NCBI GenBank assembly: GCA_016869595.1
Contig: VGDT01000001.1
Location: forward strand, 186,001 to 250,000
DNA: 64,000 nucleotides
Direction: 5' to 3'
Source: Alphaproteobacteria bacterium
Lineage (GTDB): Bacteria; Pseudomonadota; Alphaproteobacteria; Rhizobiales; Beijerinckiaceae
Positions within the stretch are counted from its first letter, which is position 1; each line of letters opens with the position of its first letter. The notes beneath the pieces were generated by a model. That model did not search any database. It saw nothing but the letters and a program-made list of their open reading frames with translations, and had not been told where the DNA came from. Below, piece by piece: positions 848 to 58,761 of the stretch. Both the position numbers and the translations under genes were made by a program.

Positions 848-1228
<381 letters not shown>

Positions 1229-1230
<2 letters not shown>

Positions 1231-23598: not shown

Positions 23599-23694
23599 GA
23601 AAATCTCCGTTTGGAAAAGGTCGCTCACGACTATAATCGCGCAGCGTCCATGCGTCGCGGCCGTGGATTCGTCGCCTGTACACGCCAGGAACGC

Positions 23695-23810
23695 TAGATC
23701 ACGCTGCATTTGGGCGGAATCGCCCAAATGCAGATAACGTGATCGATTCCAAAAATTTGGAGCGCGCTCTACGCGAAAAACCGGTTCCCACTTTTTCGCA
23801 GCGCGCTCTT
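23695..23810 (+). repeat. 116-bp composite hairpin repeat, copy A (before recN)
   Basis: Outer GATCACG (23697-23703) pairs with CGTGATC (23738-23744). The inner CTGCATTTGGGCG (23704-23716) pairs perfectly with CGCCCAAATGCAG (23721-23733). Then follow ATTTGGAGCGCGCTCT and a second palindrome, GCGAAAAA (23773-23780) with TTTTTCGC (23792-23799), flanked by GCGCGCT motifs. A second copy of equal length lies inverted at 57827-57942. The 3' edge is 12 bases before the recN start. Confidence 0.9.
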
Positions 23811-23822
23811 GAGCAAGGCCTC

Positions 23823-25502
23823 ATGCTGATTCGTCTTTCTATTCGCGACATCGTGCTGATCGACGCGCTCGACCTCGAGTTCGCGTCGGGTCTGACGACG
23901 TTGACCGGAGAGACCGGCGCGGGAAAGTCGATCTTGCTCGACGCCTTCGTACTGGCGCTTGGCGGGCGCGGCGACGCGTCTCTCGTTCGCGCCGGCTCCG
24001 AACAGGGACAGGTGACGGCGGTCTTCGATACGCCTTCGGACCATCCCGCGCATCTCGCCGCTCGCGAATTTGGGCTGACGAGCGAGGACGAGCTGGTATT
24101 GCGCCGCGTGCAGGCGGCGGACGGCCGCACTCGCGCTTTTGTGAATGATCAGCCGGCGACGGCGCAGGCGCTGCGCGCCATCGGGCGCGAGCTTGTCGAG
24201 ATTCACTGTCAGCATGACGAACGCGCGCTCGTCGATCCAAGCGCGCATCGCGCGCTTGTCGACGCACATGGGGGTCTGGTTGCGCAAGCGAATGACGTTC
24301 GCGCGCGTTACGGGGCATGGCAGGCGGCGCGCCGCGCGCTCGCGGAAGAAGAAGAGCGCGTCGCCAAGGCGCGCGCCGACGCCGAATATCTGCGCCATGC
24401 GCACGCCGAGCTTGCGGAGCTTGCGCCGCAGACGGGCGAGGAAGAAGCGCTTTCCGAACGGCGACTCTTCATGCAGCGCGCCGAAAAGGTCGCTGCGGAT
24501 ATTTCCGACGCGCTCGCCGCTTTTTCGAATGATGGATCTCCCGCGCGAGAAATCGCCCAGTCGGCGCGCCGCTTGGAGCGGCGTTTGACGCAGGCGCCGC
24601 AATTGTTGGACGCGCCTGCGCGGGCGCTGACGCAAGCGGTCGACGCGCTGGGTCTTGCCGAAGAGGCGCTTGAACGGGCGCTCGCCGAAACGAAATTCGA
24701 TCCGGCGGAATTGGAGCGCGTCGAGGAGCGGCTGTTCGCGCTGCGTGGCGTCGCTCGCAAGCATCAGGTTGCAGTCGCCGATCTGACGAAGCTCGCCGAG
24801 AAATTCGCCGACGATCTCGCGGCGCTCGATGCTTCCGAAGCGCGGCTGGTCGCGTTGGAGCGTGCGCTCGCGGACGCCAAGCGGTCTTACGACGAAGCGG
24901 CCTCAGCGCTCTCGCTTGCGCGCAAGGCGGCCGCCGAAAAACTCGATGCGCTGGTCGACGCGGAATTAAAGCCGTTGCGGCTTGAAGGCGCCCATTTTTC
25001 GACGCAGGTGACGAGCGATCCGGAGTCCGCAGGGCCGGAAGGGATCGATCGCGTCGAATTTTGGGTGCAGACCAATCCGGGGTCTCGTCCAGGGCCGCTG
25101 ACGAAGGTCGCGTCCGGCGGCGAACTCGCGCGCTTCATGCTGGCGTTGAAGGTCGTGCTCGCCGATCGCGGCTCGGCGCCCACGCTGGTTTTTGACGAGA
25201 TCGACACAGGCGTCGGCGGCGCGGTGGCCGACGCCATCGGCCAGAGGCTGGCGCGTCTCGCCGCGCGCGCGCAGGTGCTCGCCGTCACCCATGCGCCGCA
25301 GGTCGCTGCGCGCGCCGGCCAGCATCTGCGCATCAGCAAGGGCGCCCCGGCGAAGCCCGGCAAAGAGAAGCGCGTCGCGACCAGCGTCGCCGTGCTCGCG
25401 GAGGGCGAGCGGCGCGAGGAGATCGCCCGCATGTTGTCGGGCGCCGCCATCACCGAAGAGGCGCGCGCCGCGGCGGCGCGATTGCTGGAAGGGGCAGGGT
25501 AG
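23823..25502 (+). CDS. recN: DNA repair protein RecN
   Basis: SMC-like ATPase acting in double-strand break repair. The 559-residue protein begins MLIRLSIRDIVLIDALDLEF and has Walker A GETGAGKSILLDAF. A long Glu/Ala/Arg-rich coiled coil spans ~150-370. The C-terminal half carries the ABC signature VASGGELARFMLALK and the Walker B VFDEIDTGVGG with HAPQVAARA. The frame is open back to 23739, but those 28 codons are repeat sequence. ATG 23823, after AGCAAGG, is the true start. Order ftsZ-lpxC-bamD-recN is conserved in Rhizobiales. Confidence 0.96.
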   Translation: MLIRLSIRDIVLIDALDLEFASGLTTLTGETGAGKSILLDAFVLALGGRGDASLVRAGSEQGQVTAVFDTPSDHPAHLAAREFGLTSEDELVLRRVQAADGRTRAFVNDQPATAQALRAIGRELVEIHCQHDERALVDPSAHRALVDAHGGLVAQANDVRARYGAWQAARRALAEEEERVAKARADAEYLRHAHAELAELAPQTGEEEALSERRLFMQRAEKVAADISDALAAFSNDGSPAREIAQSARRLERRLTQAPQLLDAPARALTQAVDALGLAEEALERALAETKFDPAELERVEERLFALRGVARKHQVAVADLTKLAEKFADDLAALDASEARLVALERALADAKRSYDEAASALSLARKAAAEKLDALVDAELKPLRLEGAHFSTQVTSDPESAGPEGIDRVEFWVQTNPGSRPGPLTKVASGGELARFMLALKVVLADRGSAPTLVFDEIDTGVGGAVADAIGQRLARLAARAQVLAVTHAPQVAARAGQHLRISKGAPAKPGKEKRVATSVAVLAEGERREEIARMLSGAAITEEARAAAARLLEGAG

Positions 25503-57826: not shown

Positions 57827-57942
57827 AAGAGCGCGCTGCGAAAAAGTGGGAACCGGTTTTTCGCGTAAGGCGCGCTCCAAATTATAAGAATCGATCACGT
57901 TATCTGCGTTCAGGCGAGTCCGCCTGAACGCAGCGTGATCTA
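57827..57942 (-). repeat. 116-bp composite hairpin repeat, copy B (before nadK)
   Basis: The reverse complement of this stretch matches copy A (23695-23810) base for base outside a few positions. It has the same outer GATCACG/CGTGATC pairing, CTGC...GCAG stem and GCGAAAAA/TTTTTCGC second hairpin. The inner stem reads GTTCAGGCG/CGCCTGAAC instead of ATTTGGGCG/CGCCCAAAT, with pairing kept. Lies 24 bases before nadK. Confidence 0.9.
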
Positions 57943-57966: not shown

Positions 57967-58761
57967 ATGGGCGCCGCCGGAGACAGCGGAAAGAACCTTT
58001 GCGCCAAGCTGGCCTTTCTCGCCTCGGGCGCGCCGGAGGCGGAAGAAGCGCGCCTGCGCCTCGTCGAAAAATACGGCGACTGCCCGCCTGAAGAAGCCGA
58101 TTGCATCGTCGCGCTCGGGGGCGACGGCCTCATGCTGCGCACGCTGCATCGTTTCATGGACGCCGGCAAGCCGATCTACGGAATGAACCGCGGCTCGGTC
58201 GGCTTTCTGATGAACCAGTATCGCGAGACCGGCTTGCGCAAGCGGATCGCCGACGCCAAATCGTCGGTTGTGCACCCGCTGCTGATGCACGCCGTCAATG
58301 TGCGCGGCGACGAGTTTTCGGCGCACGCCATCAATGAGGTGTCGTTGCTGCGCCAGACGTCGCAGATCGCCAAGCTGCGCATTCTGGTCAATGGCCAGGA
58401 ACGCATGCCGGAGCTCATCACCGACGGCGTGCTGGTGTCGACGCCTGCCGGCTCCACCGCCTATAATCTTTCCGCCAATGGTCCGATCCTGCCGCTCGAC
58501 GCGCCGCTGATGGCTCTGACGCCCATCTCCGCCTTTCGCCCACGACGCTGGCATGGCGCGCTATTGCCGGACGCGGCCAAGGTGCGCATCGAAGTCCTAG
58601 AGGCGGGCAAGCGCCCCGTCTCCGTCGTCGCTGACCATGACGAATTCCGCGACCTCGCCTATGTCGACGTTGAGATGGACCAAGGAACGAAGCTGATCCT
58701 GCTGCACGATCCCGGCCATTCGCTGGAAGAGCGGATTCTTCGCGAGCAGTTCGGATATTGA
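57967..58761 (+). CDS. nadK: NAD kinase
   Basis: Makes NADP from NAD and ATP (or polyphosphate). The 264-residue protein contains the GGDG motif ([15 protein letters not shown], ~48-62), [16 protein letters not shown] and the NE/D block [36 protein letters not shown] and [19 protein letters not shown] complete the family pattern. Start ATG 57967 follows GAGGGGAGTAGCG. Its stop is directly abutted by the next start. Confidence 0.95.

What the first reader, a model, noticed from the sequence alone, without database searches (positions are those of the whole stretch)
23695..23810. Two 116-bp repeats whose inner hairpin stems differ by compensating base-pair changes
Copy A (23695-23810) and the inverted copy B (57827-57942) have equal length and nearly equal sequence. 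In the inner stem A has ATTTGGGCG/CGCCCAAAT and B has GTTCAGGCG/CGCCTGAAC. Three positions changed on both arms (A-T to G-C, T-A to C-G, G-C to A-T), keeping full pairing. The loop and both flanks are otherwise conserved. That pattern implies selection for the folded form (RNA hairpin or cruciform DNA), not random drift. Elements with GCGAAAAAGTGGGAACCGG are, as I recall, common in methylotrophic Rhizobiales, but covarying cores are not something I know described.
Basis: partly seen in the sequence, partly recalled or inferred. Interest (0 to 1): 0.7.

Follow-up and report, generated by a model that had tools for sequence, protein, structure and literature searches.

The report
Mobile repeat with self-copying hairpin arms
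The two repeats are copies of a small mobile DNA element common in Methylocystis bacteria; their matched stem changes are real, but they look more like the work of a copying mechanism in which one arm of the hairpin serves as template for the other than of selection for a useful RNA.

Summary
A (23695-23810, +) and B (57827-57942, -) are 116-bp copies of one dispersed two-hairpin element whose inner stems differ at three pairs, each changed on both arms. The draft genome has 33 places matching A; the right half matches 29 of 39 genomes of the genus, inferred to be Methylocystis. Insertion duplicates 2 bp, often TA: a MITE.

The covariation is significant, but selection for an RNA is not supported. 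Unpaired changes are common, and one-sided transitions give G.T and A.C equally (22 vs 24). At 23 insertion sites shared between genomes there are 35 one-sided and 5 two-sided changes; all 5 are Watson-Crick, against about 0.5 two-sided expected.

Within hairpin I, exact loss of the 4-nt bulge is the only recurrent indel of 2 nt or more (7 of 121 sites). Inserts opposite the bulge equal the complement of that copy's own bulge at five of six readable sites (TTAT/ATAA, TCAT/ATGA, TTTT/AAAA). This resembles quasipalindrome correction by template switching.

Both pattern and mechanism are in print (REPINs; rRNA; E. coli reporters). New here: the element, and a same-site natural record of the process.

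The parts
23695..23810 (+). Copy A: complete 116-bp element, majority stem type ATTTGGGCG/CGCCCAAAT, loop GAAT
   Evidence: the orthologous site is empty in G036 (L235)
23697..23744 (+). Copy A hairpin I: outer stem GATCACG/CGTGATC (7 bp), 4-nt 3' bulge ATAA, inner stem CTGCATTTGGGCG/CGCCCAAATGCAG (13 bp), loop GAAT
   Evidence: Fold; pair counts
23745..23759 (+). Copy A linker (GATTCCAAAAATTTG)
   Evidence: Sequence, fold
23760..23808 (+). Copy A hairpin II: GAGCGCGCT/AGCGCGCTC outer stem, GCGAAAAA/TTTTTCGC inner stem, CCGGTTCCCAC loop
   Evidence: Fold; also found without this hairpin I (L037, L039)
23695..23696 (+). Left TA of the 2-bp target duplication (right-hand partner reads TT at 23809-23810; empty site TT in G036)
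57827..57942 (-). Copy B: complete 116-bp element, minority stem type GTTCAGGCG/CGCCTGAAC, loop GACT
   Evidence: the same insertion is shared by G036 (L172) and G001 (L096)
57893..57940 (-). Copy B hairpin I (same architecture, three inner pairs exchanged relative to A)
23823..25502 (+). Neighbouring gene, RecN-like ATPase; the likely ATG (an in-frame choice within the longer ORF) lies 12 bp beyond copy A
   Evidence: PF02463, E 1.5e-14
57967..58761 (+). Neighbouring gene, NAD kinase; ATG 24 bp from copy B
   Evidence: PF20143, PF01513

Best explanation
The two repeats are insertions of a non-autonomous MITE-like element of Methylocystis that inserts with a 2-bp duplication (shown at six sites). 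Each copy has a long imperfect DNA palindrome at its left end. I infer that during replication the palindrome folds back, a stalled polymerase briefly copies the opposite arm instead of the true template (quasipalindrome correction by template switching), and then returns. A mutation in one arm is thereby either erased or written into the other arm, giving paired changes without selection at the site; the same process deletes the bulge or copies it into the opposite arm. Some copies whose stem had been rewritten then transposed and founded subfamilies (GTTTAGGCG, then GTTCAGGCG). A belongs to the main type and B to the GTTCAGGCG type. Shown: paired changes at shared sites, absence of wobble preference, recurrent exact bulge deletion, and inserts matching the copy's own bulge. 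Inferred: the polymerase mechanism, mobilisation in trans by an IS630-like transposase, and the subfamily history.
For: (1) Same-site comparison: 29 of 121 sites have two or more copies, from different genomes. In 23 usable sets (65 canonical copies; L181 left out as mis-registered) there are 35 one-sided and 5 two-sided inner-stem changes, all 5 Watson-Crick, against 0.36-0.56 two-sided expected from independent hits (P about 4e-5 to 3e-4): L019, L174, L117, L030 and the pair L307/L021. L019's T-A pair occurs in no other own-genome copy (one search list; pattern scan), although L034 has the same base in its 3' arm only. (2) At L030's changed pair three relatives (L121, L281, L276) carry an A.C mismatch and L030 has A-T, as expected of a caught intermediate. 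(3) G.T and A.C one-sided states are equally common, 22 vs 24. (4) Within hairpin I, exact ATAA deletion occurs at 7 of 121 sites (four copies otherwise intact, L146 with further paired changes, L102 and L133 heavily altered), every other indel of 2 nt or more at one site; of 3 insertions of 3 nt or more in the whole element, 2 lie opposite the bulge and are its exact complement, TTAT/ATAA and TCAT/ATGA. A targeted scan added TTTT/AAAA (L344, L353) and another TTAT/ATAA (L349). (5) At one site G004 lacks the bulge (L185) while G024 carries its complement in the other arm (L125). (6) Template switching makes quasipalindromes more perfect in E. coli (PMC7202029, abstract and start of introduction read); in rRNA, multiple compensatory changes and stem insertions fitting it are enriched over simulation (PMC8794818, abstract and part 1 of Results read).
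Against: In PMC8794818 isolated compensatory changes were not enriched over simulation and are called uninformative about mechanism; my five same-site doubles are of that isolated kind, so the weight rests on the bulge. Inverted loops, which some template switches leave, were not seen: 0 of 145. Inner-stem columns vary less than linker or flank at shared sites, which unbiased correction does not predict, though the unpaired hairpin II loop is low too (15/348). Outer-stem pairs show no Watson-Crick double changes at shared sites. Outside hairpin I another indel does recur: a two-base-longer 3' arm of hairpin II at 28 of 121 sites, both types at 7 sites, which conversion between copies explains as well. 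L307/L021's stem type has possible donors (L024, L036) in the same genome, and not all G036 copies were fetched, so a donor for L174 cannot be excluded. The scan favoured inserts like T-N-A-T; one further site (L346, L351) has an insert that does not match the present bulge, and L350 has lost the 3' arm.
Confidence: 0.62

Rival explanations
1. Selection on a DNA hairpin or cruciform needed for transposition: source copies must pair to be mobilised, so only compensated variants found subfamilies.
For: The main subfamily stems are fully paired (84 of 145 canonical copies have a perfect 13-bp inner stem); stems vary less than linker and flank; capacity to form a hairpin is argued to be a critical feature of REPINs in PMC3116915 (passages).
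Against: It does not by itself explain paired changes in resident copies at shared sites, or exact bulge deletion and insertion of the bulge complement. The outer arm ATTGATC, at 15 sites, breaks two outer pairs and is still widespread.
Confidence: 0.2
2. Ectopic gene conversion or recombination between copies transfers stems or short tracts from one subfamily to resident copies.
For: Mosaic stems exist (L097; L357). ACGTGATC/AATTGATC differs within 7 ortholog sets, and both hairpin II 3' arm types occur at 7 sites, as if short tracts were exchanged.
Against: No own-genome donor for L019's T-A pair was found; L117's T-A pair was the only one among the 130 copies, and the one other seen (L359) is in another genome; inserts match each copy's own bulge allele.
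Confidence: 0.13
3. Selection for a functional RNA stem (small RNA or mRNA leader).
For: Strong fold (DNA parameters) and significant covariation; copy A lies 12 bp upstream of the likely recN start.
Against: No wobble preference (22 G.T vs 24 A.C); many unpaired copies; no Rfam family at its gathering score at either copy, and for copy A only matches below it: Brucella CI27 27.8 of 59.8 bits, Brucella CI408 22.1 of 398, mir-5595 20.8 of 100; copy A is absent from the same place in G036.
Confidence: 0.04

Closest known systems
RUP of Streptococcus pneumoniae and Correia/NEMIS of Neisseria (TA-bounded MITEs)
   Same: About 100-bp, multi-copy, terminal inverted repeats, TA at the termini, target duplication (PMC2229807, passages read)
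   Different: No sequence relation tested; two separate hairpins here; no IS with exactly matching ends among 30 loci scanned; three of six empty sites read TT or TC rather than TA
REPINs with RAYT transposases
   Same: Small dispersed DNA hairpins; [quoted passage not shown]
   Different: Not two inverted REPs; a 2-bp duplication; no RAYT (PF01797) hit in the window's genome and in only 8 of 39 of the genus
RIME1 of Rhizobium and Bru-RS of Brucella
   Same: Alphaproteobacterial intergenic palindromic elements of similar size (RIME anatomy recalled; Bru-RS listed at 103-105 bp in PMC2267715, passages read). Rfam's Brucella CI27 model aligns end to end with copy A, far below its threshold
   Different: No RIME or Bru-RS sequence was compared, so relationship is untested
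Quasipalindrome correction / template-switch compensatory mutation
   Same: Arms become more complementary by substitution, deletion or insertion (PMC7202029, PMC8794818)
   Different: Here seen in a dispersed mobile element at the same insertion sites in related genomes; no RNA function is known for it

Membership tests
MITE of IS630/Tc1-mariner type | Short, non-coding, multi-copy, no transposase of its own | tested here: met
   116 bp; 33 places in G000; 121 distinct sites parsed in the sampled genomes
MITE of IS630/Tc1-mariner type | Terminal inverted repeats | tested here: met
   Imperfect: TAGATCACGC against TAGAGCGCGC
MITE of IS630/Tc1-mariner type | TA target-site duplication | tested here: inconclusive
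   2-bp duplication at six sites with clean empty alleles; empty dinucleotide TA at three (L047, a paralogous empty copy in G006; L326; L285, where L286 and L292 have TT), TT or TC at three, including copy A. Other sites were not used: ragged (C3:21642, gaps 0-3; L248, gaps -1 to 2), poorly aligned or nested. 72 of 105 sites have TA at both ends
MITE of IS630/Tc1-mariner type | Autonomous IS with matching ends | tested here: inconclusive
   No exact end pair in 30 PF13358 loci scanned (more matches exist); one-mismatch pairs in L197 and L210 were not examined further; five loci have TA-GAGCGG inverted repeats. G000 has no PF13358 hit at E 1e-5
REPIN/RAYT | Associated RAYT transposase | tested here: not met
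   No PF01797 hit in the G000 draft; 8 of 39 genomes have one
REPIN/RAYT | Two inverted REPs with a GTAG or CGTC tag | tested here: not met
   By reading the consensus: ends TAGATCACG and CGCTCTA, two dissimilar hairpins; base before the element is G at 2 of 105 sites
RIME1 / Bru-RS | Sequence homology to the family | not tested
   Only indirect sub-threshold Rfam matches to Brucella CI27 and CI408
Template-switch (quasipalindrome) mutation | Changes make the arms more complementary, opposite arm as template | tested here: met
   5 of 5 same-site two-sided inner-stem changes Watson-Crick; insert equals complement of own bulge in 2 of 2 cases of the general sample and in L344, L349, L353; not in L346/L351 (one site)
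Template-switch (quasipalindrome) mutation | Loop inversions (expected only of some switches) | tested here: not met
   0 of 145 loops inverted
Structured RNA family | G.U intermediates favoured over A.C; curated RNA model reached | tested here: not met
   22 G.T vs 24 A.C; no Rfam gathering match at either copy

The most novel reading that the evidence does not exclude
In dispersed palindromic elements, replication template switching is frequent enough to produce, without selection on any RNA, the covariation signal that is usually taken as proof of a conserved RNA structure. Same-site copies in related genomes then serve as a natural mutation-accumulation record from which the rate and direction of arm-to-arm copying can be measured, and compensatory changes reported in REPIN-like elements would need re-reading in that light.
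Probability: 0.48. Interest if true: 0.62.

Novelty: new member of a known kind. Interest (0 to 1): 0.42.

Why it matters
Covariation of paired bases is widely used to claim functional RNAs. This element shows paired changes, together with bulge corrections, in copies that otherwise look like drifting mobile DNA, so palindromic DNA can imitate RNA covariation. The G.T-versus-A.C count and bulge-complement inserts are simple checks that help to separate the two. The element is also a source of insertion polymorphism in methane-oxidising bacteria, with one insertion just ahead of recN.

Tried and rejected
Known RNA family: the gathering search over the window found only RNase P; the permissive search around copy A gave three matches, all below threshold.

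RAYT/REPIN membership: rejected for G000. IS630 partner: 30 loci scanned, no exact pair of ends; three one-mismatch pairings in two loci (L197, L210) were left unexamined.

Idea that pattern hits L348, L352 and L354 were inverted hairpins: rejected by eye; they are ordinary elements read from the other strand with loop variants. L352 and L354 do share a further two-sided change, CTGG/CCAG.

Recurrent ACGTGATC/AATTGATC difference in 7 ortholog sets: no template found by eye; unexplained.

Literature: 'Methylocystis' with 'repetitive extragenic palindromic' gave one paper, on flagella, seen as listing and start of abstract. In searches I saw no description of this element or of template switching in bacterial MITEs, but I saw only 1 to 20 rows of each, only open-licence papers are held, and most were seen as listing only. 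Passages alone were read of PMC2229807, PMC10969869, PMC3116915, PMC2267715, PMC2573895, PMC8604942 and PMC3049150. RIME1 was not read in the original.

Limits: listings are cut and only part of each genome's candidates was scored, so the sample favours copies with a good hairpin II. 145 of 173 parsed copies entered pair counts; the other 28 have a hairpin I of other length or none delimited, or are L181, dropped for misalignment (its 9 spurious inner-stem events). 6 of 179 copies could not be parsed. Expected doubles assume equal rates at all pairs; the reference state is the family consensus where present, not a reconstructed ancestor. One search did not register the hairpin II arm variant as one indel; one search counts it. 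Most genomes are drafts.

For these I lowered the main reading from 0.66 to 0.62 and the novel case from 0.50 to 0.48, and raised gene conversion from 0.10 to 0.13.

Full report
Observation. Reading them against each other gives 12 differences: three inner-stem pairs changed on both arms (6 bases), one loop base (GAAT to GACT), three linker bases and two in hairpin II. Each folds into two hairpins.

What it is. BLAST with A gives 45 rows in the 3.28-Mb draft genome: 33 places and 12 rows in which the palindrome matches itself on the other strand. Three of the 33 are partial (C4, C62: mainly hairpin II; C6:65002: degenerate). Of 61 genomes searched, own included, 34 match A; by the kinship column 27 of these are in the own genus (of 37) and 7 in other families of the order, the latter with best E-values no better than 3e-5. 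Of 39 genomes of the genus, own included, 29 match the right half, several with a single weak match. A scan for an exact 39-mer found 36 stretches, titled Methylocystis (including M. rosea SV97 and M. silviterrae FS), Methylocystaceae, or unnamed alphaproteobacterial MAGs; contig lengths equal those of handles such as G006:C1 and G036:C23. I infer that the window is Methylocystis or a very close relative.

Anatomy. TA-GATCACG-CTGC[stem]GAAT[stem]GCAG-ATAA-CGTGATC, linker, then GAGCGCGCT...GCGAAAAACCGGTTCCCACTTTTTCGC...AGCGCGCTC-TA. Hairpin II also occurs without this hairpin I (L037, L039). Four own-genome copies have hairpin II collapsed, three to TAGAGCGCGCTCTA (L028, L032, L035) and one to a near variant (L036). 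Six sites with clean empty alleles hold two bases where the filled site has a dinucleotide on either side: TA at three, TT or TC at the other three, among them copy A, which is absent at that place in G036. For copy A two of the four empty alleles listed aligned with a clean 2-bp gap. Other candidate sites were ragged, poorly aligned or nested and were not used. Of 105 sites, 79 have C before and 65 have G after the element. By anatomy this is a MITE of the TA-duplicating kind; no autonomous partner was identified.

Covariation. In 25 own-genome copies, 6 of 20 pairs show changes on both sides against 1.6 in shuffles, and 1-2 when the partner is slid. To avoid bias towards A's stem I retrieved copies by the right half and fetched 115 further stretches from other genomes, two of them from the list. 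In all loci then held there were 179 distinct copies; 173 could be parsed, on 121 sites. Of 145 with a canonical hairpin I, 112 are nearest the ATTTGGGCG type, 21 GTTTAGGCG, 10 GTTCAGGCG (B's type) and 2 CTTTGGGCG.

Drift, selection or templating. Counted once per site there are 74 one-sided and 13 two-sided inner-stem events, 11 of the latter Watson-Crick. Of 46 one-sided transitions 22 give G.T and 24 A.C (P = 0.88). An RNA under selection should tolerate G.U better. At sites shared between genomes, 23 sets with 65 canonical copies hold 35 one-sided changes (12 G.T, 23 other) and 5 two-sided changes, all 5 Watson-Crick; 0.36-0.56 two-sided are expected. As these copies share their insertion site, selection at transposition alone would not make the changes, though it can decide which stems spread. 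At L030 the A.C state is present in three relatives and A-T in L030, while L271 has G-C; both outcomes of resolving one mismatch may be visible, but the branching order was not established.

Bulge. Within hairpin I, exact ATAA deletion occurs at 7 of 121 sites: four copies otherwise intact (L107, L109, L185, L187), L146 with further paired changes, L102 and L133 heavily altered; every other indel of 2 nt or more there occurs at one site. L187 and L107 have bulged orthologs at the same site, and L185's ortholog L125 has bulge plus insert. In the general sample two copies carry a 4-nt insert opposite the bulge, each the complement of its own bulge: TTAT for ATAA (L125) and TCAT for ATGA (L141). 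A targeted scan returned 11 places. Five match their own bulge exactly (L344 and L353 TTTT/AAAA, the inner stem of L353 being decayed; L345, the same place as L125; L347, the same place as L141; L349); two at one site do not (L346, L351); one has lost the 3' arm (L350); three are ordinary elements read from the other strand (L348, L352, L354). Random insertion, or selection for pairing acting on random inserts, does not readily give own-allele complements; copying one arm from the other does.

Against this reading. PMC8794818 found isolated compensatory changes not enriched over simulation and uninformative about mechanism, while multiple ones and stem insertions were enriched; so the bulge, not the five doubles, carries most weight. 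No inverted loops were seen (0 of 145). Stems vary less than linker and flank (48/751, 38/375, 266/2603; P = 0.03 and 0.001). Another indel recurs outside hairpin I: the longer 3' arm of hairpin II at 28 sites, both types at 7. With mosaic stems and the ACGTGATC/AATTGATC difference in 7 sets this suggests some conversion between copies. I therefore give template switching somewhat over six in ten, with selection at the source and conversion as possible contributors.

Comparison with print. Template-switch origin of compensatory changes is argued for rRNA (PMC8794818: abstract and part 1 of Results read). Quasipalindrome correction is studied with reporters in E. coli (PMC7202029: abstract and start of introduction read). 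A yeast study describes homogenisation of inverted-repeat arms, and says its authors' earlier work found non-coding short inverted repeats of proteobacteria more conserved than their surroundings (PMC8604942: passages read), which fits the lower stem variability here. Compensatory changes in REPIN hairpins are stated in PMC3116915 (passages). So both pattern and mechanism are known; this element and its same-site record I did not find in the searches named under Tried and rejected.

Verdict. A real observation with an over-reaching inference: a new Methylocystis MITE whose palindrome most likely edits itself during replication.

Noticed in passing
window 23695-23822: Copy A sits 12 bp upstream of the likely recN ATG and is absent there in the sister genome G036; it may alter recN expression.
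   Followed up: partly
ortholog sets of L126, L078, L120, L107, L279, L121 and L100: Two-base difference ACGTGATC versus AATTGATC in the outer 3' arm within 7 ortholog sets; it breaks two pairs and yet recurs. Unexplained.
   Followed up: partly
hairpin II 3' arm, e.g. L191 versus L129: The 3' arm of hairpin II occurs as a shorter (AGCGCGCTC) or two-base-longer (GAGCCGCGCTC) type; the longer one at 28 of 121 sites, both types at 7 sites.
   Followed up: partly
L028, L032, L035, L036: Four own-genome copies have hairpin II collapsed to a short palindrome (TAGAGCGCGCTCTA or a near variant), an about 80-bp form.
   Followed up: no
L363: A hairpin-I-only form, TAGATCACG...CGTGATCTA, with no linker or hairpin II.
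   Followed up: no
L037: Hairpin II joined to a quite different long hairpin on its left; suggests modular assembly.
   Followed up: no
L086, L155: Elements lying directly at the terminal TA of another copy, giving tandem pairs.
   Followed up: no
window 23692-23818 (-): End-to-end but sub-threshold match to the Rfam Brucella sRNA CI27 model; some alphaproteobacterial 'sRNAs' may be such repeats.
   Followed up: partly
window 850-1229: Bacterial RNase P RNA, class A.
   Followed up: no
G007: This genome gave the most first-look candidates (249) and carries an AAAA bulge allele; probably a rich source for follow-up.
   Followed up: no
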